From Tepiditoga spiralis (GTDB lineage Bacteria > Thermotogota > Thermotogae > Petrotogales > Petrotogaceae), in assembly GCF_014701195.1 (NCBI RefSeq), contig NZ_AP018712.1:762501-826500 (forward strand): a DNA stretch of 64,000 bases, written 5' to 3'. The notes beneath the pieces were generated by a model. It ran no database searches. It worked only from the letters and a program-made list of their open reading frames with translations, and was not told the DNA's origin. Positions 30,921 through 49,820 of the stretch are shown here, piece by piece. Position 1 is the first letter of the stretch; each line of letters starts with the position of its first letter. The translations under genes were made by a program, and so were the position numbers.

Positions 30921-30955
30921 TAAAAAGATATAATCCCAAAGCTACAGGGATTATA
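30921..30955 (-). terminator. Terminator of AAA/PD-(D/E)XK gene copy 1
   Basis: TATAATCCC/GGGATTATA arms with a nine-base loop; on minus TCTTTTT follows. The stem begins within the gene's stop codon. Confidence 0.82.
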
Positions 30956-32477
30956 TTTTTTCTATTTTGTATTCGTTTATATTTCTCTTTTCTGAGTTTA
31001 TGTTTATTCCTATTATGTAAATTTCTTTCCCTTTGTACTTTTCATAGTACTTCATTTCTTTTATTTGATTCAAAGCCTTTTCTGCACTTTTGTCTATCTT
31101 TATTTCCATTATGTATATAGTGTCTTCCTCTATTACTATATCGCTTCTTCCTAAGTTCGTTAATTCTTCTGCTGTTACGTTCAGTCCCGCTGATGCAAGT
31201 ATTGTGTATATCAATGAGTGATAGTAGCTTTCTTCTTTTTTATGCAAGTTGTATGGTATTGCACTTATTATTCTTTTTATTTCTTTTATTATTCCTTCTA
31301 TGTCTTTTTCATATATTCTTTCATATATTGTGGTTTCTATTTGTTCTATTTCTCTTATTCCATAGTTTGCTTCTAATATTATCTTTGAAAAGCTGTTCTT
31401 TACTTCTATATTTGGATAGTCTAATATGTACTTTTCCCTCAATCCTAATCTTTTTATTCCTTTAAAGGTCAAGTATCCTGCTTGTGTAAAGAATATACTT
31501 GCATTTGCTTCTTCTATTTCTCGTGTTGAAAAATCGAGTTCGCTCACTGGATACTTCACTAAGTCTTCATATCTTATCTTCTTCCCTTTTATGTATTCGT
31601 ACAAGAATGATGGTGATCCACTTTCAAACCAATAGTTTTGAAACTTTCTTTCATTAAAAAATCTTAATATTGAAAATGGATTGTATACACTATCTTCTCC
31701 ATCAAATGAAAATCCATTGTAGTACATCTTTAAGTTTTTTAATAACTCTTTTTCTTCCATCTTCATTTCAATTGCTGTTTCTTTTATGTGCTCTTTAAAG
31801 TTACTTTCTAACTCTTCTTGTGTATACCCCAACATCTGTGCGTATTTTTTATTCAACGATATATCATTTAAGTTGTTCAATGCAGAAAATACTCCTGTTT
31901 TTGTGAACTTTGTTATTCCTGTCATGAATACAAACTTTATGTATTCATCTTTTGATTTTATGCTCACATAAAAGTCTCTCAATATTTCTCTATACTTTTC
32001 TGCTTTTTCTTTGTTGTTTATATTGTCTAATATTGGTTTTTCATATTCATCTACTAATATTACTACTCTTTCTTTTTGGGATAGTTTTATTATTAGTTCA
32101 TTGAATGCAAACTTATAGTCTGTTTCTGTTATTTCTATTCCATTTCGCTTTCCTTCTAATTTTATTATCTTTGTTAGACTTTCTTTCATTCTTTCCACAT
32201 TATCTGTTGCTACATCTAAAAGGTTTATCCTTATTACTGGATACTCTTTGAACTCCCATTTGTCGTATATGTATGTTCCTTTAAATAAGTCTTTTTCTCC
32301 TTTAAATAGATAGTACAGTGTTGATATCGTTAAACTCTTTCCAAATCTTCTTGGTCGAGATAAAAAATAAAATTTTCCACTTGTTATTAATTCATATAAA
32401 TATTTTGTTTTATCTATGTATATATAATCTGTTATTAATTCTTTAAAGTCTTGTACTCCTATTGGTAGTTTTTTCAT
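30951..32477 (-). CDS. AAA-ATPase/PD-(D/E)XK nuclease family protein, copy 1
   Basis: 508 residues from the ATG at 32477 (GAGGTG six bases upstream); a GTG three codons earlier lies in that site. The N-terminal AAA-ATPase-like domain (PF09820 type) starts LPIGVQDFKELI. Walker A is the family variant FLSRPRRFGKSLTI near residue 42, and Walker B is VVILVDEYEKPI near 140. The C-terminal PD-(D/E)XK nuclease domain ends with SDIVIEEDTIYIMEIKID (D..E-x-K). Two paralogs lie at 47733-49529 and 57548-59257. The biological role of the family is not established; defence or mobile-element behaviour is suspected. Confidence 0.85.
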   Translation of the reverse strand: MKKLPIGVQDFKELITDYIYIDKTKYLYELITSGKFYFLSRPRRFGKSLTISTLYYLFKGEKDLFKGTYIYDKWEFKEYPVIRINLLDVATDNVERMKESLTKIIKLEGKRNGIEITETDYKFAFNELIIKLSQKERVVILVDEYEKPILDNINNKEKAEKYREILRDFYVSIKSKDEYIKFVFMTGITKFTKTGVFSALNNLNDISLNKKYAQMLGYTQEELESNFKEHIKETAIEMKMEEKELLKNLKMYYNGFSFDGEDSVYNPFSILRFFNERKFQNYWFESGSPSFLYEYIKGKKIRYEDLVKYPVSELDFSTREIEEANASIFFTQAGYLTFKGIKRLGLREKYILDYPNIEVKNSFSKIILEANYGIREIEQIETTIYERIYEKDIEGIIKEIKRIISAIPYNLHKKEESYYHSLIYTILASAGLNVTAEELTNLGRSDIVIEEDTIYIMEIKIDKSAEKALNQIKEMKYYEKYKGKEIYIIGININSEKRNINEYKIEKI

Positions 32478-32575
32478 CTTTATCACCTCTAATCTTTATT
32501 CATTTTATTATATCATAATCTCTAATAAAAGAATATTCTATATATATTTTTTTCACAAAAAAAGTGTTAACCATT

Positions 32576-32818: not shown

Positions 32819-35800
32819 ATTTTTAACCCTCTAAGGATAGATAAGGACAAAATTTTACTCTAAATAAACAAACAACAAAATATTTTGTTTTTAACCCTCT
32901 AAGGATAGATAAGGACAATCTAACAAAAGACGCAGAGTTTAAAATGACAACAGGAGGTTTTTAACCCTCTAAGGATAGATAAGGACTGATATGGTAGCTT
33001 TATTAAAACGTAGTAGTAAATATGAGTTTTTAACCCTCTAAGGATAGATAAGGACTAATATAAACGTGTCAGCAAACCAATTAGGGGTTACTGAAGTTTT
33101 TAACCCTCTAAGGATAGATAAGGACGAAGTTGAAAAACAACAAATTATGCAAAACGCACAAGTTTTTAACCCTCTAAGGATAGATAAGGACTGTATCTAC
33201 ATTAAGAGGTAAGGCAATTACACCTTAGTTTTTAACCCTCTAAGGATAGATAAGGACTTGAGTACTACGTTTGGAAACGGGGGAATATTTCCCCAAGTTT
33301 TTAACCCTCTAAGGATAGATAAGGACAAAATTTTACTCTAAATAAACAAACAACAAAATATTTTGTTTTTAACCCTCTAAGGATAGATAAGGACGAAACA
33401 TTGAAAAAGTTACCTTACAACATGTTAAATAATGTTTTTAACCCTCTAAGGATAGATAAGGACTTACTGCAACGGAAATTATTTTGGAGCCGGAGATTAT
33501 TAGTTTTTAACCCTCTAAGGATAGATAAGGACGTAGCGAATATACGGCAAATGCTGAAACCATGGAAGAGTGTTTTTAACCCTCTAAGGATAGATAAGGA
33601 CTCTCTTAGATGAGGAAGATAAAAAAAAGGAGGCTAAAAAAGTTTTTAACCCTCTAAGGATAGATAAGGACAATAATATCCTCTGCAGTTATAAAAAATT
33701 TTAAAAAGTTTTTAACCCTCTAAGGATAGATAAGGACGTATAACGGCAATAGCCGTTATGCCCAAGCTTGGGCAAAGTTTTTAACCCTCTAAGGATAGAT
33801 AAGGACATGTTAGTAAAGTTGAATATATGAGTTTTATGTTTGCAAAGTTTTTAACCCTCTAAGGATAGATAAGGACAAAAAGGAAATACTTGATATGGTA
33901 GCTTTATTAAAAGTTTTTAACCCTCTAAGGATAGATAAGGACAAATTTAAATTTATAGTACTTTTCCAATACATATATTGTTTTTAACCCTCTAAGGATA
34001 GATAAGGACGATATTTTCTGGTCTCATCAACAAATTCCAGAAGAAGTTTGTTTTTAACCCTCTAAGGATAGATAAGGACAAATTATAAATAGTGCTCAAA
34101 CTTACTTTGATATTGAGTTTTTAACCCTCTAAGGATAGATAAGGACTTGTGTTCCTAGGAACATACGCTCTTGCCAAAGCAAAGTTTTTAACCCTCTAAG
34201 GATAGATAAGGACACAGAAACACATTTACACGAATGCAAAGGGTTTATAAGTTTTTAACCCTCTAAGGATAGATAAGGACAAAAAAAAGTTATACGATAG
34301 TTACTTTTAAAATAGAGAAGTTTTTAACCCTCTAAGGATAGATAAGGACAATTTCCAACCTTGTTTTTATTATACCGTTATTTATTAAGTTTTTAACCCT
34401 CTAAGGATAGATAAGGACGTGCATACATTTTGACAAGCACTATAAAAAAATTTAAAAAGTTTTTAACCCTCTAAGGATAGATAAGGACCAAAGAAATGGA
34501 ATGCATGACAACAAAATTCATTTTAGTTTTTAACCCTCTAAGGATAGATAAGGACAAAAAATGTTTAAAGTTGATGATTCTCTTATTGGTATAGTTTTTA
34601 ACCCTCTAAGGATAGATAAGGACCAAAAGTACACTTAGAAGAACAATTACAAAAAAGAGAGTTTTTAACCCTCTAAGGATAGATAAGGACCCATTCAAAA
34701 TTAATTTGTATTGGTACATCAAATTTTGGTTTTTAACCCTCTAAGGATAGATAAGGACATGGGAAGATTTCAACTGCATCTATTAAATACTTCCCAGTTT
34801 TTAACCCTCTAAGGATAGATAAGGACTATTGCTAATAAGATAGTTGCTAATCTCCAAAATAGTTAGTTTTTAACCCTCTAAGGATAGATAAGGACAAAAA
34901 TGGATACATTAATGATAAATATTCATAAAGGAGTTTTTAACCCTCTAAGGATAGATAAGGACCCAATCGGAAATTGGGATGTTTCTTCAGTCATCAAAAT
35001 GGTTTTTAACCCTCTAAGGATAGATAAGGACATTAGAACATGTAGCAGAAGATTTATTTTACAATCCAATGGTTTTTAACCCTCTAAGGATAGATAAGGA
35101 CAAGTATTTAACAACAAAGTTAATTCACTAAGTAATCAGTTTTTAACCCTCTAAGGATAGATAAGGACGAATTTAAAAGCAATTGAAATGAAAGATAGTA
35201 CCGCATGTTTTTAACCCTCTAAGGATAGATAAGGACCAAAACATGTTATAATTAAAAATATAGAGGAGAAAAGTTTTTAACCCTCTAAGGATAGATAAGG
35301 ACCTTTATACATTTAAATCATCCACCTTTAAAAGTTTTTGTTTTTAACCCTCTAAGGATAGATAAGGACGATGTAGAATTTTCATATATAAATTTTGAAA
35401 ATTTTAAGTTTTTAACCCTCTAAGGATAGATAAGGACTTGTTCCACCAAGAATTGCTCCAAGAGGTGCAGTTCCTGTTTTTAACCCTCTAAGGATAGATA
35501 AGGACAATTCTAAGCCCTTTATAGCCTCATACAGCGATTTTAGTTTTTAACCCTCTAAGGATAGATAAGGACAATTATTTCAAAAGAAGAAAATAAAAAA
35601 AAGATTTTCGAAGTTTTTAACCCTCTAAGGATAGATAAGGACAATAACCAGTAACAAATACTTAATAAAAGTGAAATGGTTTTTAACCCTCTAAGGATAG
35701 ATAAGGACTATTTATAGAACATGCTTGAAATGAATAGTTACGAAAAGAGTTTTTAACCCTCTAAGGATAGATAAGGACTAGTATGGATGATAAGCAGTTT

Positions 35801-35912
35801 AGTTCTGCTAATAACGTTTTTAACCCTCTAAGGATAGATAAGGACAAAAAGATAATAATGCTATTTATTATTTAGTATTCGAGTTTTTAACCCTCTAAGG
35901 ATAGATAAGGAC
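32819..35912 (-). CRISPR. CRISPR array, 46 repeats of 30 bases and 45 spacers
   Basis: As written on plus, the repeat is 30 bases, starting GTTTTTAACCCTCTAAGG and ending ATAGATAAGGAC. All 46 copies are identical except the first (32819), where base 1 is A instead of G. Spacers are 36-40 bases. I assign the direction as minus. A consensus promoter reads into the right end, the degenerate repeat is at the left end, the cas operon has the same direction, and most spacers are sense-coding on plus, so minus-strand crRNAs would be antisense. Read that way the repeat starts GTCCTTATC and the likely 8-base crRNA handle is TTAAAAAC. The newest spacer would be 35846-35882. Spacers 1 and 8 are identical; spacers 3 and 16 overlap by 22 bases. 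Confidence 0.97.
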
Positions 35913-35945: not shown

Positions 35946-35974
35946 ATTATAACACACCAAATTTTTGGTGTCAA
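35946..35974 (-). promoter_or_regulatory. CRISPR leader promoter with palindromic operator-like spacer
   Basis: On minus, TTGACA (35974-35969), 17 bases, TATAAT (35951-35946), both perfect, 33 bases from the last repeat. The palindrome ACACCAAA-TT-TTTGGTGT (35954-35971, plus strand) fills the spacer and overlaps the -35 box, as a repressor operator would. The predicted start is near 35939. Confidence 0.88.
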
Positions 35975-36415: not shown

Positions 36416-37414
36416 TTAATTTTTTATTTCTTCAAATCTTCCATATCCATTTGATGTTTTTGCACCCAATCCATATATTTCTAAAAATTCTAAAAATAGT
36501 TCTCTAGTTTTTTCTATTTTTTGTTCATCAAATTTTTTTCCATTTATTATTAAATCAAATCTAAACTCACTATCTTCTCCAACACTTAAATAAGACAATG
36601 GATTTGGATTATATACATCATTTGGAGGTTTTTTACCTGAATAATATTCTCCAAAGTGTGGTGTTTGATATTCTTCAAATATTTTCGGATTATTTAATGG
36701 GATTGCTTCTAAAAATTCTATCTTTCCACTTTCTTCTTGAGTTCCAAATATAATTTTTATCAAATCTTTTAGTTCTTGTTTTTCTTCAAATTCATTTTTT
36801 GTTTCTAAGTAATGTCTAAATGCACCTTTTATTGCACTTCCTGGTATTGTTGGAATTCCATAATTTCTATTCCAGTAAAATCCTATTTCGTCCATTGAAG
36901 GTATTCCTGCTCCTATTAAAAATGGTGTTGTGTTTTTTGCTATTATTGTGATTGATTCTTTTTTTTGAATATTCAATAATGATCTAAGCATTTTTATTCT
37001 TATTGATTTTAATTTTTTAAATAATCCATCAAATTCTATTGCTTTTATATTTTCTTTGTATATTATTTTACTGAATTTTTTTTCATCTAAAATTCTCGAT
37101 TCGTTTACACTTTTTAATATATTTAATGTAAATCTTTCTTCTTTTTTTATTTGTAACTTTGAATTTTTTTGATTACTAACTACGTCTGAACGAATTTTTG
37201 TTATTTGTATTTCTTTTAGTTTTGGATTTACTTTATCGGCTATTTCTTTGCTAACTTCTTGTCTTTTTTTTTCGTCAAAATTCTTTTTTATACCTAATTC
37301 TTCTTTTATTATTTCAAAATCTTTTTTTAAATTTTTTTGTATTCTAAAAGAGAGTTTATCATAGTATAAAGAGGCATTTTTTATGTCTTTGATTGTATCA
37401 TTATAAAATTCCAA
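36416..37414 (-). CDS. cmr6: Type III-B RAMP protein Cmr6
   Basis: 332 residues. RAMP features: PFLIGAGIPSMDEIGFYWNRNYG near residue 170, IPTIPGSAIKGAFRHYLE near 192, and the C-terminal glycine-rich loop EIYGLGAKTSNGYGRFEEI. It caps the 3' end of the crRNA in the Cmr complex. The N-terminal 120 residues are an extended helical, basic region. The start is TTG at 37414 after AGGAGGTG. Last gene of the operon. Confidence 0.9.
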   Translation of the reverse strand: MEFYNDTIKDIKNASLYYDKLSFRIQKNLKKDFEIIKEELGIKKNFDEKKRQEVSKEIADKVNPKLKEIQITKIRSDVVSNQKNSKLQIKKEERFTLNILKSVNESRILDEKKFSKIIYKENIKAIEFDGLFKKLKSIRIKMLRSLLNIQKKESITIIAKNTTPFLIGAGIPSMDEIGFYWNRNYGIPTIPGSAIKGAFRHYLETKNEFEEKQELKDLIKIIFGTQEESGKIEFLEAIPLNNPKIFEEYQTPHFGEYYSGKKPPNDVYNPNPLSYLSVGEDSEFRFDLIINGKKFDEQKIEKTRELFLEFLEIYGLGAKTSNGYGRFEEIKN

Positions 37415-37430: not shown

Positions 37431-37877
37431 TTAATCTTTATCTTTTTCTATAAATATATCTGCATATCTTCTATACCAACCAACAAAGCTCAATATTCTA
37501 TCTTGAAATTCTTTTAAATTTCCTTTTTCTAAAAATTCTAAAAAATTATTATAATTATCTTTTTCAATATTTTCAAAATCATAAAATTCTTCAAAAAATG
37601 CACATAAATCATCTAAAATATATTCAATATATTTTTTTTCATCAGCTTTTTTATTTTTTTCTTTGTCTTTTTTTTCTGATTTCGGATTCATCTTAGAACG
37701 ATAAAAAATAACTGTTCCATACAAACCATTTTGAATAATCATAGAACCCAAACCTTTTATTGTTGATTTATAAGCTTTTAATAATTTATCTTTATTTTCA
37801 AAATTTTCACAGTTTTCTAATGTATTTAAAATACAGTCTTTTGCCAATTCTTGTACACTTTTATCTATTTTTAGCAT
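37431..37877 (-). CDS. cmr5: Type III-B small subunit Cmr5
   Basis: 148 residues, helical. It starts LKIDKSVQELAKDCILNTLENC and contains YKSTIKGLGSMIIQNGLYGTVIFY near residue 50, the typical Cmr5 core where an alpha-helical protein pairs along the target RNA channel. A Lys-rich loop (KKDKEKNKKADEKK) interrupts it near residue 83. It lies between cmr4 and cmr6. Confidence 0.88.
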   Translation of the reverse strand: MLKIDKSVQELAKDCILNTLENCENFENKDKLLKAYKSTIKGLGSMIIQNGLYGTVIFYRSKMNPKSEKKDKEKNKKADEKKYIEYILDDLCAFFEEFYDFENIEKDNYNNFLEFLEKGNLKEFQDRILSFVGWYRRYADIFIEKDKD

Positions 37878-37890
37878 AAAATATCATCTC

Positions 37891-38739
37891 CTATAAATAT
37901 TTTATATAAGTAAATCCTTTTCCTATAGTTGATTTACCTCCTATATTTACAAATTGTTTATCTGTTTCTTTTGTTAGTATATCAAGTCCATGATCTTTTA
38001 ATAATGTTTTTACTATAAAGTACATTATTGTATCTTGTGGTAAGTATTCTTCATACCAAAGACCTCCTGTTTTTTTATCAACAGTTCCTGTTTCATCTAT
38101 TTTTATTCTTGCCATAATTTCTGTAGATCCTTTTACAAAAAATCTAAAATCTTCATCTGATATTATTAATACTCTTTCTTTTAATTTATTTTGTAATGTT
38201 TCATCTGGTAATATTTTTTTTATTGAATTTAAAAAGTCTACTAATTCTTTTGAATATTCTGGAGTTACTTTATATTCTTCTAAATTTATTTCAGTTTTAT
38301 TTGTTGAATAATATTCTTTGTCTGATTTTATAGTTTTTAATAAATTACTAACTTTTGTTTCTAAATCTTTGTTTCCAAACATTTTAAAAAGTATATTTAC
38401 TCTGCTTAATATCATAGGACACGTAATCCATACAAATCCTTCTGTAATACTTCTTACTGGAAATAAAAATATTTTAGCTTCTGAAAAAGATACGCTTCCT
38501 GATTGATCTTCTGTTCCTTTTTCTTTTTCTTTTGGACTTCCAAAGATTTTTATATCTTTATCTCCTTTAAATACTTCTTCAAATTCATTTCTAAATGCAC
38601 CTTTTATTCCAGATATTATAGGGAAGTCTGTATGTACTTCTCTTTGTATTGGTAAATCTACTACTCCCGAATCAAATCCTTTTCCTGCATGTAATTGAGA
38701 AACTGCATATAAAAATCCTATTTTACCATTTTTACTCAT
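37891..38739 (-). CDS. cmr4: Type III-B backbone protein Cmr4 (RNA-cutting subunit)
   Basis: 282 residues. VSQLHAGKGFDSGVVDLPIQREVHTDFPII near residue 13, ISGIKGAFRNEFE near 42 and FVNIGGKSTIGKGFTYIKYL at the end define Cmr4. An Asp in the HAGKGFDSGVVD region is the expected catalytic residue for cutting target RNA at six-base steps. It forms the helical backbone of the complex. AAGGAGG precedes the ATG. Confidence 0.92.
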   Translation of the reverse strand: MSKNGKIGFLYAVSQLHAGKGFDSGVVDLPIQREVHTDFPIISGIKGAFRNEFEEVFKGDKDIKIFGSPKEKEKGTEDQSGSVSFSEAKIFLFPVRSITEGFVWITCPMILSRVNILFKMFGNKDLETKVSNLLKTIKSDKEYYSTNKTEINLEEYKVTPEYSKELVDFLNSIKKILPDETLQNKLKERVLIISDEDFRFFVKGSTEIMARIKIDETGTVDKKTGGLWYEEYLPQDTIMYFIVKTLLKDHGLDILTKETDKQFVNIGGKSTIGKGFTYIKYL

Positions 38740-38762: not shown

Positions 38763-39767
38763 TTATTTTTTTAATTCTATGTATTTTCCAAAACCATAAT
38801 AATCATATTTGTCTGTTAATGTATTAATTTCACCTTTTGTATAATAACATGATCCAACTGGTACTACTTTCATTAATTCACCAGGTTTATTTTCGACGCC
38901 ATTCCAAAAACCTATTGTTTCTGGTTTGTAATTTGCTATTGCAATTATATTTTCATTATTTTTAGGTAAGATTCCACTTTCAATAAAACTTGGAGTTAAT
39001 GTATATAATATTTTTTCTTCATCATTAACTTTATCAAAGATATTAGTTTCTATTTCTATTATTTCAAGTCTTGCTAATTTTCCTTTTGTTCCTAATTTTA
39101 TTGTGTTATACTTTTCTAATAATTTTAATTCATCTTTTTCTACAAAGAAACAAAAACCAGAATTTTCTTCAAATCTAAAGTAGTTTAATGAATAAAGGCC
39201 GCCTTTTTTTGTGTATCTTTTACCTTTTTCAATTTCTATTCCTATTTTTCTTTCTATTTTATATGGTATATTTGATGGTGTATTTTTTTCTGTGTCTATT
39301 ATATTTACATATCCTTTTTTTAATTCTTCTAATTCTTTTAAGGTTATATAGTTTTTGTTTAAATCATCTAAATTATTCATTTTTTCATATCTTAATCCGT
39401 TTAATTCTTTTGTACCTATTTTGAATTTTATATTTTCATCTATATATGCTTTATATATTTTTTTTGAATGTGTTTCATTTGATTCTTTTTCTTTTTTTAA
39501 TATTGCTGGTTTTTTAAAAAATATTTCTGTTTCACCGTTATTTTGTTTAAATACAAATGGTCCTGTTATATCTAATTTTCTTTCTTTCATTAATGTTGAT
39601 ATTTCTTTTGCTGATTTTTCTTCAAAGTTATATAAATTCCCATATATTGCACCTAAAAATGTTTTTAAATTAGGAAAATGTGTATCTTCACTTGTTGAAA
39701 ACGATTTAGCTGCTCTAAATGCAACCCAATCAAGTGGTTTTATTAATAATAATTTTTTTTTCATCAT
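38763..39767 (-). CDS. cmr3: Type III-B RAMP protein Cmr3
   Basis: 334 residues. It starts KKLLLIKPLDWVAFRAAKSFS, followed by HFPNLKTFLGAIYGNLY near residue 30, which is typical of Cmr3. It binds the 5' handle of the crRNA with Cmr2. The double ATG at the start overlaps the cas10 stop (ATGATGA), so translation is coupled. Confidence 0.9.
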   Translation of the reverse strand: MMKKKLLLIKPLDWVAFRAAKSFSTSEDTHFPNLKTFLGAIYGNLYNFEEKSAKEISTLMKERKLDITGPFVFKQNNGETEIFFKKPAILKKEKESNETHSKKIYKAYIDENIKFKIGTKELNGLRYEKMNNLDDLNKNYITLKELEELKKGYVNIIDTEKNTPSNIPYKIERKIGIEIEKGKRYTKKGGLYSLNYFRFEENSGFCFFVEKDELKLLEKYNTIKLGTKGKLARLEIIEIETNIFDKVNDEEKILYTLTPSFIESGILPKNNENIIAIANYKPETIGFWNGVENKPGELMKVVPVGSCYYTKGEINTLTDKYDYYGFGKYIELKK

Positions 39768-42220
39768 TCACCACCTCTTTTTGGTTTTTTAGCTGAATAT
39801 TCTAATTCTTCTAATATATCTAATATATCTTTTAATTCTAAATTTTTATTTTTACATAAGTTTAATATTTTTTTAGTTGGTTCAATTAAGTTTCCTAAAT
39901 TCATTCTTTCTTTTATTATAAATGGAACAACTTTTTTAATAAATTCTTCATCTTTTAAAATTCTTTTATTATTTGAAAAACACAAACTTTCATATTCATA
40001 TTTTAATTTACTTATAAATGCTTGTTCAGATTTTTTATTTTCTTCTAATTTACTTATTAGACTATTAGCAGTTTCTATTATGTCTTTTTTTGGAACTATA
40101 TTAATATCCCATTTTGATTTAGCTATTTTTATTTTTCCAGATCCCCTTATTGAAGATATTGCAAATGAATCTCTGTCTACTTTTTTTTGTTTGTTATCTT
40201 TATCCATTTCAACTTCATAATTACTTTTAGCTATTTTTTCAAGTTCTCTTGCTTTGTTTAATGCTAATTTTAAATTGTATGATGGATTAAATGTCAATAA
40301 TCCTGCACTCATAGTTGCTCTATGTCCCATCATATTTGAAATCATTTTTCCATCTTTGTACATATATCCTTTATTGAATTTTAAGTTTTCTAATTCTAAA
40401 TTATCTACACCAGAATATGCTTTTCTTATATCGTTTGCTGCTTGAGCTAACTTATTAGAAGGTAAGATGGCAAGAACATCATCACCACCTGCATATATTA
40501 ATGTTCCTTTATAATTGTTTATTATTTTTGGAACTAATTTTGAAAATTCATTCAATGTTCTTGATATTGTTCTTTGATAAGAAGGTGTTATAAATTGAAG
40601 TTCTTCCAATTTTTCTAAGTATTTTTTATCTATTCTTTCAAGACGACTTATAGCATTTTTATGTAATCGTTGATAAAGAACAGGAGCTTTTTTACCTGAA
40701 ATCCATTCTCCCATTTTATCTCCATCCATCATTAATATTGATGCATTATAATCTTTTGAAATTTCTGTTATATCATCTTTAGTATTTTTTTTAGTATTTT
40801 TTAAACTTTTACTTGCTTCTTCATACAATGTTTCTTTTTCAAGATAATTTGGTAAGTATCTTTTTATTAAAGTAATTGCAGATATATTTTCAGTTTTTTC
40901 TTCGTCATCGTATATTGTAATTTCTTTTATCAAAGCTTTTTCATTTCCAGATATTTCATCGCCAGGGTTTGAATTTTGTTCTATATAGCCAATAAAATCT
41001 CTTGTTGTTTTTCTAATTCCTGATTTTATCCCTAATAATTCTGAGTTATATGAATAATATTGATAATCTTTAACAGTATATGTGTTTTCTAATTTTTCAA
41101 AGCTTTCTTTTAAAGGAGTAAGATCTATTCCTGTATAATCTTTATATTGCATATTTAAAGAATTAAAATTTTCTAAATTTTGAACTGTTGCTACTATAGT
41201 TGGAAATTGTTTTACTTGCTTTTTAAATTCTTTTGTTATTTGTTCTTTACTTAGTCCATGTTCTGTAATTAATTCAAAGCTAACATTACTTTTTAATTCA
41301 TTCAATGTATTATTATTAATTTTTTCTAAAAAGAAATTTATAATATTATCTCTTTCAAGTAATATCCATTCTTTAATCTTATTTATTACTAATTCAACAT
41401 CACTTTTTGGAATTATAAAAGAAAATACATTTGGAAGAGATGCTACTGCAGGGTCTATTTCTAACTCTTTTGTATAAAATCCCAAATCTTTTGCAACAAA
41501 GTAATTGTCCCTCATTGAAGGAAATATAATACAATCATATCCATAATTTTGTCCAACATATTTAATTCCTTGATAAGTTAAGTATGAAAGTAAATAACTT
41601 CCATTTCTAAGATCTGATATTTTTCTTCCTGCTGCTATAAAGTCTTGTACTGGGCCAATTGAAATCATTACTATTGAATAATTTTCTGTTGTTACACTTG
41701 AAAATGCTGCAGTTGTATCTAAATGATCTATTATTGATACATCTGGTACTCTTGTGTCTGCTGGTAATAAATATGATTGTTCTACTGATTTTGGTAGATA
41801 CCACCAAATGTAATTGTATAATTTTTTTGCACTTTTTACATCATTAACATCAAGTTTTTCTTTTTCTATATATTTTTTTATATCTTCATAAAATTTATTT
41901 GATTGAGATAATATATCTTTTTTATTTAATTGTTTATCTAATATGTCTTTACTTACTTTTTCACCAGTTAAAGGATGAATTATATAAAATTCATTACTAT
42001 TAACATAAACTCTTTGTTTATCTGAATTTGTTTGTTCATTTGGAAGTGGTATTCTTTCAATAGAACTGGCAATTACATCTGCTTTTGGTTTATTTGGAGT
42101 TATATTTAATTCACTTATTCTTTTATTTTGTAATGCTTCATGAGTTTTTATTGTATATACCTTTTCCACTGGATCGTGTAATAAAGCATTTATTTTTCTA
42201 TGCCAAAATTTAATAGCCAT
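39764..42220 (-). CDS. cmr2: Cas10/Cmr2 with HD and GGDD motifs
   Basis: 818 residues. HD at residues 15-16 (INALLHDPVEK) gives the single-strand DNA nuclease motif. A first palm domain follows ISIGPVQDFIAAGRK near residue 190, then LMMDGDKMGEWISGK near residue 495 and TLIYAGGDDVLAILP near residue 577, the cyclase palm with an intact GGDD. Both the nuclease and the cyclic-oligoadenylate synthase activities are therefore predicted. No CARF-domain effector gene is seen in this window. GGAGGG precedes the ATG. Confidence 0.95.
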   Translation of the reverse strand: MAIKFWHRKINALLHDPVEKVYTIKTHEALQNKRISELNITPNKPKADVIASSIERIPLPNEQTNSDKQRVYVNSNEFYIIHPLTGEKVSKDILDKQLNKKDILSQSNKFYEDIKKYIEKEKLDVNDVKSAKKLYNYIWWYLPKSVEQSYLLPADTRVPDVSIIDHLDTTAAFSSVTTENYSIVMISIGPVQDFIAAGRKISDLRNGSYLLSYLTYQGIKYVGQNYGYDCIIFPSMRDNYFVAKDLGFYTKELEIDPAVASLPNVFSFIIPKSDVELVINKIKEWILLERDNIINFFLEKINNNTLNELKSNVSFELITEHGLSKEQITKEFKKQVKQFPTIVATVQNLENFNSLNMQYKDYTGIDLTPLKESFEKLENTYTVKDYQYYSYNSELLGIKSGIRKTTRDFIGYIEQNSNPGDEISGNEKALIKEITIYDDEEKTENISAITLIKRYLPNYLEKETLYEEASKSLKNTKKNTKDDITEISKDYNASILMMDGDKMGEWISGKKAPVLYQRLHKNAISRLERIDKKYLEKLEELQFITPSYQRTISRTLNEFSKLVPKIINNYKGTLIYAGGDDVLAILPSNKLAQAANDIRKAYSGVDNLELENLKFNKGYMYKDGKMISNMMGHRATMSAGLLTFNPSYNLKLALNKARELEKIAKSNYEVEMDKDNKQKKVDRDSFAISSIRGSGKIKIAKSKWDINIVPKKDIIETANSLISKLEENKKSEQAFISKLKYEYESLCFSNNKRILKDEEFIKKVVPFIIKERMNLGNLIEPTKKILNLCKNKNLELKDILDILEELEYSAKKPKRGGE

Positions 42221-42231
42221 TATTTCCCTCC

Positions 42232-43569
42232 TTAATCTACTATTTTTAAATTTTTTAAAGTATCAAATACCATTTTTAGATTTTCGTTTCCTTTAACTTT
42301 AAATTCATTTTTTCCTTTATTAAATTTAATATCTTCTATTTTTTTCCCATTTACAAAGCTATTTTTATTTGTAATTTTACTTCTTATTAAGCTAATTCTA
42401 TACCTGTATTTTCCATTTTCTTTATATATTTTTATAAACATTTGAGAAGCTTTTCTTCCTTCACTATTAGATAGAGTATAATTTCCACTATTTATACCTT
42501 TAAATTGTCTATCTCCAATTTTATAATTAATAGGTAATCCTAAAAAAGATTGTACAAATTGAATAGATTGATTTTCATGATTTTTTATTGAGTATATACC
42601 TTTTCTAAACGAATCTTCATCTAATTTTTCATTTGATTTTATTTTTCCTTCTTTTATAACATATTTTCCTCTAAGCACTTTTTTTAATTTTATATACATT
42701 CCTACATTTAATTTTAACGAATTATCTTTATTTAAATATCTTGTTTTTGGATCTGGTTTGTATAAATAATCATATAATTCAAGAAAAGTATCAAATTTAT
42801 TTTTTGATTCTAATATTACATATTTTTTAGAAAGTAATGTTGGATATGTAGGGCTAGATGTAAAATTTTGTATATCATAATCAATATTGTTTAAATCATA
42901 AAAATTCTTTTTTAAAGTTTTATCTTCAAAGATATACTTTTCATTATTATAATTTTTTTTCATATTTTCTATTATTTCTTTTAAAACTTCTTCTAAATTT
43001 TTTATTAAGTTACTTTTTGTATTAATTATTTTATATTCATTAGATTTTATAATTTCAAAACTTCCAAATCCTTTTCTTGATTTAGCTCCAAATCCTCCTA
43101 AATAAGAGGTAAGATTCAATAGATAAAATAAAAGCTTATCTAATCCACTTATATTTTTTTTAATAATAAACTTTATATTTATTTTTGAATTTTCTTTTAA
43201 ATAATATCTATCTTCTTGTCCATATAAAGCATATTTATTATATTTATCATTTGTTAAAGACTTTCCTTGTTTATCTGAAATATCTTTTTTATCATATTTC
43301 ACAAGTACATCAAATGGTGATTTTATTTCTGTTGATCCAAATATATAACTTTCTATATCTTTTAATAATTTATAATTCCAAAAACATTCTTCACCTTTTA
43401 ATTTTGAATTTCCATTATTATCTACAATATTTACAACTCTTGGTAGTATTGCTCTAAACCAAAATCTAAGTACACCTCTAACACTTTGTGGAGTTAATGC
43501 AAATTTTTTATCCCCTCTTCCAGAAAACATAGGAGATATAGTTTTTATTTCTATATCCAATTTTTTCAA
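42232..43569 (-). CDS. cmr1: Type III-B RAMP protein Cmr1
   Basis: 445 residues from TTG at 43569, placed after GGAGGTG; a GTG at 43578 overlaps that site. IKTISPMFSGRGDKKFALTPQSVRGVLRFWFRA, split over residues 10-40, then CFWNYKLLKDIESYIFGST and LGGFGAKSRKGFGSFEI are Cmr1 signatures. It contacts the 3' end of the crRNA with Cmr6. Second gene of the cas6-cmr operon. Confidence 0.92.
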   Translation of the reverse strand: MKKLDIEIKTISPMFSGRGDKKFALTPQSVRGVLRFWFRAILPRVVNIVDNNGNSKLKGEECFWNYKLLKDIESYIFGSTEIKSPFDVLVKYDKKDISDKQGKSLTNDKYNKYALYGQEDRYYLKENSKINIKFIIKKNISGLDKLLFYLLNLTSYLGGFGAKSRKGFGSFEIIKSNEYKIINTKSNLIKNLEEVLKEIIENMKKNYNNEKYIFEDKTLKKNFYDLNNIDYDIQNFTSSPTYPTLLSKKYVILESKNKFDTFLELYDYLYKPDPKTRYLNKDNSLKLNVGMYIKLKKVLRGKYVIKEGKIKSNEKLDEDSFRKGIYSIKNHENQSIQFVQSFLGLPINYKIGDRQFKGINSGNYTLSNSEGRKASQMFIKIYKENGKYRYRISLIRSKITNKNSFVNGKKIEDIKFNKGKNEFKVKGNENLKMVFDTLKNLKIVD

Positions 43570-43589
43570 TTTAATCACACCTCCATAAT

Positions 43590-44306
43590 TTATATTGTTT
43601 CAATCATTCCAAATCCTTGTGAATTTCTTAATCCTAATCCCCAATCAAAAGCTAATTTTAATACTTCGTTATTACCATATATTTTGTATGTTCCTTCCCA
43701 AGCTTCAAAGGTTGTTGTTTTGTATTTTAATACTCTTTTATTAGTTGGGTTAATTCTTTGTGGAATAATATTAAAGGTTTCTGTATTAATTCCCAATGCC
43801 TTTCCTTTTGTAGACATATTATATTTAATAATTTCACAAAACTCTGGATCTTTTGGATTGTATCTCAGTAACTTTCTTTCTCCATTTACTCTTAATACCT
43901 TTTCATATACTAATATTGGAGATAATGTTTTAACTAGTGCATAATTATCAAAAGTGTATCTTAATCTTCTTATACTACTAATGTTCAAAAAGTTATTTCC
44001 TATTCTTATATTGTTTAATTCTGTTAATTTTTCTAAAAATTCTTCCAATAAAATTTCAAAGGGTGAAGAAAAATATATCCATATTTCATCTCCAAAATAA
44101 ATACTATTATCTTTAACTTCATATCTTTTGCAAAATATTTTAGAATAAGAGAAAGGCTTCATAGTCTTAGAATCAACTATTATACCTTCATCATGTAAGT
44201 AATCAAATTTTTTAGTTACCAAGTTATAAAATAATCCTTGTAAATAATACTGATAAGAAATTGGTAATACAATATTTTTACCTGATAAGTTAATTTTCAC
44301 TCTCAA
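43590..44306 (-). CDS. cas6: CRISPR repeat endonuclease Cas6
   Basis: 238 residues from TTG at 44306, with AGGTGA six bases upstream, which gives the usual start (M)RVKINLSGKNIVLPISYQYYLQG. The C-terminus LAFDWGLGLRNSQGFGMIE is the glycine-rich RNA-binding loop of Cas6. It cuts the array transcript inside each repeat to give crRNAs with an 8-base handle. It has its own promoter upstream and heads the cmr operon. Confidence 0.92.
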   Translation of the reverse strand: MRVKINLSGKNIVLPISYQYYLQGLFYNLVTKKFDYLHDEGIIVDSKTMKPFSYSKIFCKRYEVKDNSIYFGDEIWIYFSSPFEILLEEFLEKLTELNNIRIGNNFLNISSIRRLRYTFDNYALVKTLSPILVYEKVLRVNGERKLLRYNPKDPEFCEIIKYNMSTKGKALGINTETFNIIPQRINPTNKRVLKYKTTTFEAWEGTYKIYGNNEVLKLAFDWGLGLRNSQGFGMIETI

Positions 44307-44350
44307 TTTAATCACCTGATATATTAATTTTTTTTAATAACTCACTTATT

Positions 44351-44391: not shown

Positions 44392-44655
44392 TTATAAAAA
44401 TTTTTCATATTTATTTTTCTCAATACCAGTAATATCAAAGGTTAAATTTTTCTTTGTTAAAGTTTCAAAGTATATTATGCTATCTTCATTTTCTTTAATT
44501 ATAATTTTTAGTTTTCTTTTTAATTCATTAAACTTCTTTTCAGTAATAGACCCTTCAAAAACTGAATTTTGTATCCAATTAAGATATTGTTTTATAATTT
44601 TATGAACCTTTCCTACTCTTTTTGTATTTATGTCATACATTAATACAATATACAT
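44392..44655 (-). CDS. cas2: Cas2, second tandem copy
   Basis: 87 residues from the ATG at 44655, which has AAAGGAGCG eight bases upstream; an upstream in-frame ATG lies inside the preceding cas2. YIVLMYDIN at the start carries the conserved Asp, and QYLNWIQNSVFEGSIT is a Cas2 signature. It is roughly 60-65% identical to the copy at 44702-44965, with the same length and end (EKNKYEK-x-L). Cas2 dimers bridge two Cas1 dimers during spacer integration. Confidence 0.93.
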   Translation of the reverse strand: MYIVLMYDINTKRVGKVHKIIKQYLNWIQNSVFEGSITEKKFNELKRKLKIIIKENEDSIIYFETLTKKNLTFDITGIEKNKYEKFL

Positions 44656-44674
44656 TTTTATCGCTCCTTTAATT

Positions 44675-44701
44675 AAAATAAAAGCAGGAGTTATCCTGCT
44701 T
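44675..44701 (-). terminator. Attenuator-like hairpin between the two cas2 genes
   Basis: AAGCAGGA/TCCTGCTT arms with a four-base loop, beginning right after the first cas2 stop and followed on minus by TTATTTT. It probably reduces expression of the second cas2. Confidence 0.75.
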
Positions 44702-44965
44702 CTACAAAATTTTTTCATATTTATTTTTTTCTAAACCAATTACATTATAAAATATATCTTGTTTTCTTGTAGTCTTTATATATACAACACTATCTTCATT
44801 TGCTTTTGTCATGGAATTTATTCTATCTTTTAATTCATTTAATTTTTTTTCAGTAATGGATCCTTCAAAAACTGAATTTTGTATCCAATTAAGATATTGT
44901 TTTATAACTTTATAAACTTTACCTACTCTTTTTTCATTTATATCATATACTAAGATTACATACAT
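44702..44965 (-). CDS. cas2: Cas2, first tandem copy
   Basis: 87 residues starting YVILVYDINEKRVGKVYKVI, with the conserved Asp in YDIN and QYLNWIQNSVFEGSIT. It starts four bases after the cas1 stop. It is closely related to the second copy downstream, so the pair arose by tandem duplication. Either homodimers or a heterodimer could form; both keep the key residues. Confidence 0.95.
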   Translation of the reverse strand: MYVILVYDINEKRVGKVYKVIKQYLNWIQNSVFEGSITEKKLNELKDRINSMTKANEDSVVYIKTTRKQDIFYNVIGLEKNKYEKIL

Positions 44966-44969
44966 ATTA

Positions 44970-45944
44970 TCAAACTTCTTCCATATACGGAATATAGTTA
45001 GTACTTTTTTTATTAATATATTTTTTTAATCTGTATAAATCAATTCCAATTAATTCCTTATATGATACATATTTTTTTAAGTTTTTTAAATAGATTGTTT
45101 GAGATAATTTTTCATCATATGATTTAATAAATTTTTGTTTTCCACTTTTATTTAAATAGATTCCATGTTTTTTATTTTCAAAATCTGATTTTTTAAATTC
45201 ATTTTCTTTAAACATATCAAAAACTATTCTATCAACAATGAGTGGCTTAAAAATTTCTGATATATCTAAGCTTAATGCATTTTTTCTATCATTTGAATGT
45301 AAATAACCTATTGAATTAAATAAGCCAACATTATTTATCGTTCTTACACATTCTGAATAAAAAACACTATTTCCAAAACTTATAACAGAATTTATTTCAT
45401 TTTCTGGTGGTCTTTTAAGTCTTTTTTCAAATTTAAAATTATCATTATTTATTATTTTATCAAAAAATGAATAATAATATCTTCTAAATTCTGCTTCTAT
45501 TATCATTAATATGTCTACTGATTCTATTTCGTTTAATTTTAAAATCATATTTTTAATTTTTTCTTCATCATATTTCATTTTATACAACTTAAAATTTGAC
45601 CTCATATTATTCATTGCTGCAAATAAAATCATTTTTACTAAATTTATTCTTTCTTCGTATATTTGATAACTGTTAACTTGATTAATTAAAGTTTTCCCTT
45701 CATAATTTAGATTATCTGGTATATAGCTTCCTAAATAGTTTTTATAATAAGAAAACATATGCATTACAATTTTATATTTTGATAAAAGGTGTAAAAAGCT
45801 ATCATTAAACTTAACATTTGAAAACACTTTTATATCTTGAATATTGTTTATTGGTAGTATTTTTTTACGTTCTTTTGTAATAAATTCTATTGTATTATTT
45901 TTTCTTTTTAATTCACCATTTGAAAATATATAAATATTATCCAT
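44970..45944 (-). CDS. cas1: CRISPR integrase Cas1
   Basis: 324 residues, the usual length for a stand-alone Cas1, with no reverse-transcriptase fusion. The likely metal ligands are E150 (MIIEAEFRRYYY), H216 (SIGYLHSNDR) and D227/E230 (ALSLDISEIFKP). It begins YIFSNGELKRKNNTIEF, the N-terminal beta domain. It integrates new spacers with Cas2. TAGGAGGTG precedes the ATG. Confidence 0.95.
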   Translation of the reverse strand: MDNIYIFSNGELKRKNNTIEFITKERKKILPINNIQDIKVFSNVKFNDSFLHLLSKYKIVMHMFSYYKNYLGSYIPDNLNYEGKTLINQVNSYQIYEERINLVKMILFAAMNNMRSNFKLYKMKYDEEKIKNMILKLNEIESVDILMIIEAEFRRYYYSFFDKIINNDNFKFEKRLKRPPENEINSVISFGNSVFYSECVRTINNVGLFNSIGYLHSNDRKNALSLDISEIFKPLIVDRIVFDMFKENEFKKSDFENKKHGIYLNKSGKQKFIKSYDEKLSQTIYLKNLKKYVSYKELIGIDLYRLKKYINKKSTNYIPYMEEV

Positions 45945-47732: not shown

Positions 47733-49529
47733 TTATAAATTTCTTTTTCTTATTTTTTTTAATGTAACTAATGATATTCCAGTTGATTTTGATACTAAGT
47801 TAATATCAGCGCCATTTTTTAAAAGATTTAAAGCTATTTTTTCTATCTCTGTTAATTCAACATCTTTATCCAAATTACTAACAATTTCAATTTCTTTTTT
47901 ATCAAAGGATATTGCTACTTTTATTATATCGTTTATTCCATAACTTTTTATTTCTTCTTCATACTTCTTTTCATTTATTTGTTTTAGTCCATTTTGTGCA
48001 CTGTCTTTTAAACTTTTATCTTCATCTCTATTGTACTTTTTAAACTCTATTATTATTCCTTTATCTGTTTTATCTTTTGGAATTAATATAACATCAGCTC
48101 TTCCAAGTCCTGTTTCTCTATTACTCTTTATTATGTACTCTTCTTTTAATCCAACACTCATTCCAAGTATTAATCCATGATAAAACCTTTCCGGTTCTTT
48201 TCCACTAACATCAAAGTAACTCAATGTATTCATCGTTAAATCTTTAAATTGGTCTGTAAAGGTCTTTATTCTTCCTACTTTTAAATTCAAAAGCATATTT
48301 TCAATACTTATATTTGATTCTCTCAACATATTTCTAACTGTTTGTACAAAAAAATCTTTTACTTCTTCATTTGGTATCTTTACTTTATACATTGTTATAT
48401 TATTTTTTCTTTTTTTACTCGTCCACTTTAAGTAACCACTAAATAAAAATAATGTCCAAATTGCGCTTTCACTATTTAAGTTTAAATCACCATAAACCAT
48501 TGTTTCTATTATTTCGCACTCTACTTCTTCTCCATTTATTAATTTTTCTACACTATCTTTTATATTAACAGTTCCTTCTTTTATTAACTTTCTTATTAAG
48601 TAATTTCCACTCGTATTCATCCAATATGGTCTTATCTTTTTTTCGTCTACTAAGTTTATTATAGAAAAAGGATTGTATATCTCTACTCCACCAAAGTTAT
48701 AACCATTGTACCAATCTATAACTTCATTTTCTTCATATTCAAGTTCATAATACTTTAATGTTTCTTCTACTTCTTCTTTAGTTAAACCATACTTATCATT
48801 GAATAGTTCATTCAATACAGTAGAAACCTTTAAGTTATTCACACCAGTAAAGATACTTTCTTTAGATACTCTTGTTATACCAGTAAGAACTGCTTTTTCA
48901 AGATATACATTGTCTTTTAATGCCATGCCAAATAAGTTACCAATTAAAGATATTATTTCATCATAGTAACCATGTAAGTAAGCTTGTTGAATGGGAGTAT
49001 CATATTCATCTATTAATATTATTACCTTTTTACCATAGTATCTTTCCATATACTTTGATAAGTTTCTTATAGAGTTTTCATACTTTGCATCATCTGCTGT
49101 TTCTGAAATTATTGATTTATATACTGATTTTTCCTTTTCATCCAATACATCTAAAACATACTTATGATCAATGTATAAAGATGAAAGTTCCATGGCTAAT
49201 AAGTCATGCATCTTTTTTAAGTTATTAGACTTTAAATCTTTAAAGGTGATGTATATAACTGGATATTTATTTAAATGTTTTTCTATTATATTTTTTTCTT
49301 TATATATCTTTAAATCTTTAAAGAGGTGTTCGTTGTTTTGAGTAATATCAAAAAAGTACTTCATCATAGATTGACTGAGAGTTTTACCAAACCTTCTTGG
49401 TCTTGTTATTAATAAAACATCTCCACTTTCAATAACTTCTTTGATTAACAAACTTTTATCTACAAAATACATATTGTCTTCTATTAATGATTTAAAATCA
49501 CTTCTTCCTATTGGAAGTCTTTTTTTCAT
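47733..49529 (-). CDS. AAA-ATPase/PD-(D/E)XK nuclease family protein, copy 2
   Basis: 598 residues from the ATG at 49529 after GAGGTG. LPIGRSDFKSLIEDNMYFVDKS starts it; Walker A is LLITRPRRFGKTLSQS, Walker B is VIILIDEYDTPIQQA near residue 165. The nuclease motif is GRADVILIPKDKTDKGIIIEFKKY (D..E-x-K), here in two pieces around residue 500. Unlike copy 1 it ends with a helix-turn-helix-like tail (LLKNGADINLVSKSTGISLV) found on many Rpn/PD-(D/E)XK proteins. The -10 region TATGATATAAT and leader resemble those of copy 1. Confidence 0.85.
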   Translation of the reverse strand: MKKRLPIGRSDFKSLIEDNMYFVDKSLLIKEVIESGDVLLITRPRRFGKTLSQSMMKYFFDITQNNEHLFKDLKIYKEKNIIEKHLNKYPVIYITFKDLKSNNLKKMHDLLAMELSSLYIDHKYVLDVLDEKEKSVYKSIISETADDAKYENSIRNLSKYMERYYGKKVIILIDEYDTPIQQAYLHGYYDEIISLIGNLFGMALKDNVYLEKAVLTGITRVSKESIFTGVNNLKVSTVLNELFNDKYGLTKEEVEETLKYYELEYEENEVIDWYNGYNFGGVEIYNPFSIINLVDEKKIRPYWMNTSGNYLIRKLIKEGTVNIKDSVEKLINGEEVECEIIETMVYGDLNLNSESAIWTLFLFSGYLKWTSKKRKNNITMYKVKIPNEEVKDFFVQTVRNMLRESNISIENMLLNLKVGRIKTFTDQFKDLTMNTLSYFDVSGKEPERFYHGLILGMSVGLKEEYIIKSNRETGLGRADVILIPKDKTDKGIIIEFKKYNRDEDKSLKDSAQNGLKQINEKKYEEEIKSYGINDIIKVAISFDKKEIEIVSNLDKDVELTEIEKIALNLLKNGADINLVSKSTGISLVTLKKIRKRNL

Positions 49530-49820
49530 TTTTATCACCTCGTTTTCTCGTTTTATTATATCATAGTCTTCAATAAAAAAGAATTTAATAATTTTAAATT
49601 ATAATGTTTTCAGCATTTTTTTATAGTTAAAATCTTTGAAAGAAATAATCTAAGAAGAATCAAGAACCATAATTATATTTCTTTTATAATAAGCTTTAAA
49701 ATTATACTTAATCAAAAATTTTGTAATGGATAATACTATATTTTTCTTGAAAATCTTTATTTGCATAATACCTATACATAATTTAGTCATAATAATTTTG
49801 GTTTTGACTTTTACTAGAAA
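49530..49820. other. Intergenic stretch, promoter of copy 2 only
   Basis: On minus an extended -10 (TATGATATAAT) lies about 30 bases before copy 2. The rest is AT-rich. A 62-codon frame on minus runs through a terminator and has no ribosome site, so I do not call a gene here. Confidence 0.5.

What the first reader, a model, noticed from the sequence alone, without database searches (positions are those of the whole stretch)
32819..35912. Spacers are strongly biased to plus-strand coding sense, so leftward crRNAs would be antisense to mRNA
By eye about 30 of the 45 spacers give an uninterrupted, natural-looking codon frame and an A-rich strand on plus (for example LEHVAEDLFYNPM, VSTLRGKAITPL, NINVSANQLGVTE); only one (near 35438-35475, GTAPLGAILGGT) reads clearly better on minus. 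A Cmr complex must pair with RNA, so this orientation fits minus-strand crRNAs. The bias is notable because Cas1 here has no reverse-transcriptase fusion; it implies strand-selective acquisition or strong selection.
Basis: partly seen in the sequence, partly recalled or inferred. Interest (0 to 1): 0.7.

Follow-up and report, generated by a model that had tools for sequence, protein, structure and literature searches.

The report
CRISPR spacers aimed at messenger RNA
The 45 virus memories stored in this bacterial CRISPR array mostly lie in the one orientation that lets their guide RNAs pair with viral messenger RNA, as expected for an RNA-targeting CRISPR system whose wrongly oriented memories are probably weeded out by selection.

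Summary
The strand bias is real. A codon model (90.5% correct on held-out 38-mers) reads 34 of 44 distinct spacers as plus-strand sense; the estimated fraction of leftward crRNAs antisense to mRNA is 0.85 (0.71-0.96). Stop codons alone hardly show it, and 3-6 spacers read clearly better on minus, not one. Leftward transcription is well supported: a 12-of-12 promoter faces the array from the right, the mutated end repeat lies at the left, and the cmr operon runs the same way. A second III-B system in the same genome gives 0.86-0.92 (77 spacers); 328 spacers from I-B-like arrays (own genome and four relatives) give 0.48 (0.42-0.54), so the method does not lean. No DNA protospacer was found. Four spacers match known protein motifs (SSB, T4-like terminase, two DUF285 repeats), all plus-sense. 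The genome has no detectable reverse transcriptase. Coding-strand bias in type III arrays, RT-free ones included, is published; in Thermus it came from selection, naive uptake using both strands. A pyrimidine-rich acquisition motif could give about 0.70-0.78 without selection and is not excluded. A good example of a known kind.

The parts
32819..35912 (-). CRISPR array, 46 repeats, 45 spacers; crRNA strand inferred to be minus (repeat as crRNA: GTCCTTATCTATCCTTAGAGGGTTAAAAAC)
   Evidence: only array with this repeat in the genome
32819..32848 (-). leftmost repeat with its outer base changed (G to A on plus): inferred leader-distal end
35946..35974 (-). leader promoter TTGACA-17-TATAAT, 12 of 12 with TG before the -10, about 34 bases before the array, reading left into it
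   Evidence: no plus-strand promoter match at the left flank
35954..35971 (.). perfect palindrome ACACCAAA-NN-TTTGGTGT between the -35 and -10 hexamers (operator-like)
32917..32956 (+). spacer 2, peptide NLTKDAEFKMTTG, resembles the SSB N-terminal motif (RLTRDPEIRMTTT), sense on plus
33192..33227 (+). spacer 6, peptide VSTLRGKAITP, matches T4-like terminase large subunit motif STLRGKAIT, sense on plus; no open frame on minus
33807..33846 (+). spacer 15, VSKVEYMSFMFA, DUF285 repeat, sense on plus
34963..35001 (+). spacer 32, PIGNWDVSSVIKM, DUF285 repeat, sense on plus
32987..33025 (+). spacer 3, overlaps spacer 16 by 22 bases, same strand and frame (KKEILDMVALLKRSSKY)
33877..33912 (+). spacer 16, overlaps spacer 3; its target's flank on the crRNA 5' side reads ...CTACTACG
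36416..37414 (-). cmr6
37431..37877 (-). cmr5
37891..38739 (-). cmr4
38763..39767 (-). cmr3 (98.5 bits, just under the curated cut-off 100.4)
39764..42220 (-). cas10/cmr2 with N-terminal HD and GGDD motifs
42232..43578 (-). cmr1
43590..44315 (-). cas6
44392..44718 (-). cas2 (second copy)
44702..44965 (-). cas2
44970..45944 (-). cas1 (Cas1b-type, 324 aa, no RT fusion)

Best explanation
This is a complete type III-B (Cmr) CRISPR locus whose array is transcribed leftward from a promoter at its right end. About 85% of its spacers yield crRNAs antisense to viral mRNA. Most likely the conventional Cas1-Cas2 takes up DNA spacers from both strands (inferred). Only those whose crRNA pairs with a transcript activate Cmr and protect the cell, so cells carrying them survive and the array keeps an antisense excess (inferred from published experiments). 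Shown here: the bias, its direction, its presence in a second III-B system of the same genome, its absence in I-B-like arrays of the same family, and the absence of a detectable reverse transcriptase. A contribution from a sequence preference at acquisition is possible.
For: Strand estimate 0.85 (0.71-0.96) for the array, 0.86-0.92 for 77 spacers of the second III-B system, 0.48 (0.42-0.54) for 328 I-B-like spacers. Classifier 81-98% correct on AT-rich viral/prophage regions of relatives. Peptide homologies of spacers 2, 6, 15 and 32 all plus-sense; spacers 3 and 16 overlap in one frame. Promoter, end repeat and operon direction. No RVT_1 domain in the genome while the control search finds it in E. 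coli. No trend along the array (rho = -0.03). Literature: PMC8482600, PMC7515739, PMC5576922.
Against: No protospacer was found, so target strand is inferred from codon statistics and four peptide homologies. Selection was not observed here. A C/T-rich adjacent motif could on its own give about 0.70-0.78 antisense in such genomes, which the data disfavour only weakly (2 delta lnL 5.1-5.8 against 0.71, 3.5-4.0 against 0.75). The first crRNA spacer base is T in 30 of 44 (p = 6e-4, best of 24 columns examined, so about 0.06 after full correction), hinting at some acquisition preference.
Confidence: 0.78

Rival explanations
1. The bias is set at acquisition by a sequence preference, not by selection. 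Cas1-Cas2 chooses prespacers next to a pyrimidine-rich motif or with T at the integrated end; since viral template strands are pyrimidine-rich, most spacers come out antisense.
For: In viral genes of relatives a TC, TTC, CC or TCT motif on the crRNA-like strand would alone give 0.69-0.775 antisense. First crRNA base T in 30/44, p = 6e-4 uncorrected.
Against: Estimates of 0.85-0.92 lie above that range, though the intervals reach it. The one target flank that can be read (spacer 16, from spacer 3) is ACG, not such a motif. I-B-like arrays in the same family show no bias. The second III-B system shares the bias but not the 5' T preference: 33 of 77.
Confidence: 0.12
2. Transcription-coupled or RNA-derived capture: spacers are taken from transcripts or from displaced single strands by an unrecognised polymerase.
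For: A CRISPR-associated primase-polymerase-like gene (AEP-TOTE domain with TPR) lies in the genome's other III-B locus, and such enzymes are implicated in adaptation (PMC8211822).
Against: No reverse transcriptase found in the genome; no such gene among those tested next to this array. Published RT-free type III systems take both strands, or favour the coding strand, which is the non-functional direction.
Confidence: 0.06
3. The bias is a composition artefact: A-rich spacers are merely read as coding.
For: A/T skew alone gives 26.6 of 44 plus calls in dinucleotide shuffles.
Against: 34-35 observed, none of 200 shuffles reaches the mean score, frame signal z = 7.6 on plus; the same method gives 0.48 on 328 I-B-like spacers; homologies agree.
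Confidence: 0.04

Closest known systems
Coding-strand bias of natural type III spacers (Vink et al. 2021, PMC8482600)
   Same: Excess of spacers whose crRNA pairs with mRNA; strongest in type III; Moraxella III-B 88%.
   Different: There measured on mapped protospacers; here inferred from codon statistics. Here about 0.85 against their type III average of 65%; I-B-like arrays here show no bias, theirs 55%.
RT-free type III-A/III-B adaptation in Thermus thermophilus (Artamonova et al. 2020, PMC7515739)
   Same: Conventional Cas1, no reverse transcriptase, strong antisense bias in retained spacers.
   Different: There selection was demonstrated during phage infection; here it is inferred.
RT-Cas1 type III-B of Marinomonas mediterranea (PMC5576922)
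   Same: Cmr effector needing crRNAs antisense to the target RNA.
   Different: Has RT-Cas1; new spacers only marginally favoured the antisense direction. No RT here.
Marinitoga piezophila CAPP-Cas1-Cas2-Argonaute locus (PMC8211822)
   Same: The second III-B locus of this genome has a CAPP-like gene, cas1 and an Argonaute related to 5i4a over its full length (E 5e-200).
   Different: Not the locus of the finding, which has plain cas1 and two cas2.

Membership tests
Type III-B (Cmr) CRISPR-Cas | cas10/cmr2 plus cmr1, cmr3, cmr4, cmr5, cmr6 | tested here: met
   All six found by NCBIfam models, cmr3 at 98.5 bits against a cut-off of 100.4
Type III-B (Cmr) CRISPR-Cas | Array of repeats and unique spacers beside the operon | tested here: met
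   46 repeats, 44 distinct spacers
Type III-B (Cmr) CRISPR-Cas | crRNAs antisense to target transcripts | tested here: met
   0.85 (0.71-0.96) by codon model; four peptide homologies agree. Inferred, since no protospacer is known
Type III-B (Cmr) CRISPR-Cas | RNA cleavage and cyclic oligoadenylate synthesis | not testable with these tools
   HD and GGDD motifs present in Cas10; activity needs an assay
RT-Cas1 type III systems | Reverse transcriptase fused to or beside cas1 | tested here: not met
   Cas1 324 aa, cas1 models only; no RVT_1 in the genome
Selection-driven type III spacer bias | Both-strand acquisition without selection, antisense excess after selection | not testable with these tools
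   Needs acquisition experiments; published for Thermus
Type III-specific coding-strand bias | Bias in type III arrays and little or none in type I arrays | tested here: met
   Two III-B systems 0.85-0.92; I-B-like arrays 0.48, n = 328; type of the relatives' arrays assigned by repeat similarity only

The most novel reading that the evidence does not exclude
An RT-free type III-B Cas1-Cas2 itself takes up spacers strand-selectively, by an end or adjacent-motif preference or by transcription-coupled capture, so that most new spacers are functional before any selection.
Probability: 0.14. Interest if true: 0.6.

Novelty: new member of a known kind. Interest (0 to 1): 0.3.

Why it matters
It gives one genome with two RT-free III-B systems, both strongly antisense-biased, next to I-B-like arrays of the same family without bias. 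It shows that strand use can be measured from codon statistics when no protospacer is known, which matters for hosts whose viruses are unsampled. It also raises a confound: in such AT-rich genomes a pyrimidine-rich acquisition motif alone would give about 70-78% antisense spacers, so a bias of that size need not mean selection.

Tried and rejected
Protospacer searches at the DNA level: phages and plasmids, nothing below E = 0.02; 21 family genomes and 103 genomes of the phylum, only weak matches (best 86-89% over about 35 bases) outside the array. Codon-degenerate patterns in IMG/VR for spacers 3/16, 33, 2, 18 and 39: none; spacer 6 gave four terminase ORFs. Ungapped peptide comparison of all spacers with 1971 ORFs from prophage regions and viral contigs, and with 974 ORFs of T4-like phages, gave no overall strand signal (20 vs 21 better on plus/minus; 3 vs 4 above threshold), being dominated by chance matches. 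The repeat was not found in other genomes. Cas10 relatives found elsewhere are 21-31% identical and not informative. Repeat folding does not decide the strand.

Full report
What is there. The array at 32819-35912 has 46 copies of a 30-base repeat and 45 spacers of 36-40 bases, 44 of them distinct. It is the only array with this repeat in the 2.5 Mb single-contig genome. To its right, on the minus strand, lies a full III-B operon: cmr6, 5, 4, 3, 2 (cas10), 1, cas6, two cas2 and cas1. Cas10 has HD and GGDD motifs.

Which strand is transcribed. Three independent features point left. A 12-of-12 sigma-70 promoter with an extended -10 sits at 35974-35946 on the minus strand, about 34 bases before the array. 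Exact matches of that kind are rare in the window: 5 found, 0.16 expected. The left flank shows no plus-strand promoter match. The only changed repeat is the leftmost one, as usual for the leader-distal end (established knowledge). The operon runs the same way. The crRNA tag would be TTAAAAAC (inferred from the repeat, last 8 bases).

Is the bias real. A codon model with position-specific trinucleotides, 90.5% correct on held-out 38-mers, reads 34 of 44 spacers as plus-sense. The maximum-likelihood fraction is 0.85 (0.71-0.96), or 0.92 (0.75-0.99) when a non-coding class is allowed. Viral training gives the same. The model is 81-98% correct on AT-rich viral and prophage regions of relatives and worse on GC-richer ones; the spacers have 27% GC. 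Skew alone accounts for 26.6 of 44 plus calls and not for the frame signal.

Controls. The genome has two further cas1 loci. One belongs to a I-B system with 12 spacers. The other is a second III-B system with a CAPP-like primase-polymerase, cas1, cmr genes and an Argonaute related to 5i4a over its whole length, with 77 distinct spacers in several arrays. In crRNA orientation the second III-B system is 0.86-0.92 antisense. The I-B array and repeat-related arrays of four relatives, 328 spacers, are 0.48 (0.42-0.54). So the method has no built-in lean, and the bias goes with the III-B systems. Caveats: the relatives' arrays were classed by repeat similarity alone, and one of them (G011) leans the other way (0.33, 0.20-0.48).

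Targets. No protospacer was found at the DNA level nor with most codon-degenerate patterns. Peptide homology suggests four targets: spacer 2 resembles the SSB N-terminal motif; spacer 6 carries STLRGKAIT, whose four IMG/VR matches all lie in terminase large subunits of T4-like kind, in frame; spacers 15 and 32 match DUF285 repeats. All four are plus-sense. Spacers 2, 15 and 32 were recognised by eye after the fact, so they support rather than test. The pattern for spacer 6 was written in the plus reading, but that spacer has no open minus frame. Spacers 3 and 16 overlap by 22 bases in one frame and one strand. A blind peptide comparison of all spacers gave no strand signal, being dominated by chance matches.

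Mechanism. A Cmr complex is activated by RNA complementary to its crRNA, so only antisense crRNAs defend (established; PMC5576922). In RT-free Thermus, spacers came from both strands without selection and were strongly biased after it (PMC7515739). Across databases type III spacers are 65% coding-strand, Moraxella III-B 88% (PMC8482600). Selection is thus the best explanation here as well. It was not observed directly.

A rival that the data only weakly disfavour. In viral genes of relatives the template strand is pyrimidine-rich. A motif such as TC, TTC or CC on the crRNA-like strand would by itself yield 0.69-0.775 antisense spacers. The first crRNA base is T in 30 of 44 (p = 6e-4, best of 24 columns examined in the two systems, so marginal after correction). 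The second III-B system has the bias without this T preference. The lower limits of the estimates reach the motif range.

Verdict. Observation partly confirmed: direction and size right, details off. Interpretation partly supported: antisense crRNAs yes, notable for lack of RT no. A new instance of a known kind.

Noticed in passing
window 35954-35971: Perfect palindrome ACACCAAA-NN-TTTGGTGT exactly between the -35 and -10 of the leader promoter: an operator-like site that could regulate array transcription. No other copy in the window or in fetched loci outside this place.
   Followed up: partly
L014, L015, L247-L249 (G000:C1:2017906-2079980): Second III-B system with CAPP-like gene, cas1, Argonaute and cmr genes, with at least five arrays. 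Its spacers are richer in hairpins (23 of 77 with MFE below -6, against 28 of 328 I-B-like) and contain families of near-identical or palindromic spacers built on TTCTTAGCTAAGCTAAGAA; compare the reported hairpin preference of type III adaptation. Part of the difference may be spacer length.
   Followed up: partly
window 44392-44965: Two adjacent cas2 genes, overlapping by 17 bases, with nearly repeated sequence (..YLNWIQNSVFEGSITEKK..).
   Followed up: no
window 30951-32486 and 47733-49538: Two AAA-ATPase-like/PDDEXK_9 genes flank the CRISPR locus on both sides.
   Followed up: no
window 32849-32886 and 33327-33364: Spacers 1 and 8 are identical, a duplication or repeated capture inside the array.
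   Followed up: no
L012 11858-12686 (G000:C1 about 114858): I-B spacer TCTTAAAGCGTCTATCCAATGATTATTTTTGTCCTC reads EDKNNHWIDALR on its other strand and matches EDKDNHAIDAIR in an ORF (L065:42-512) in or beside the terminase gene of a prophage region (score 49, well above the shuffle maximum of 38).
   Followed up: partly
L254 (G011): The I-B-like array of this relative leans to the mRNA-avoiding strand (0.33, 0.20-0.48).
   Followed up: no
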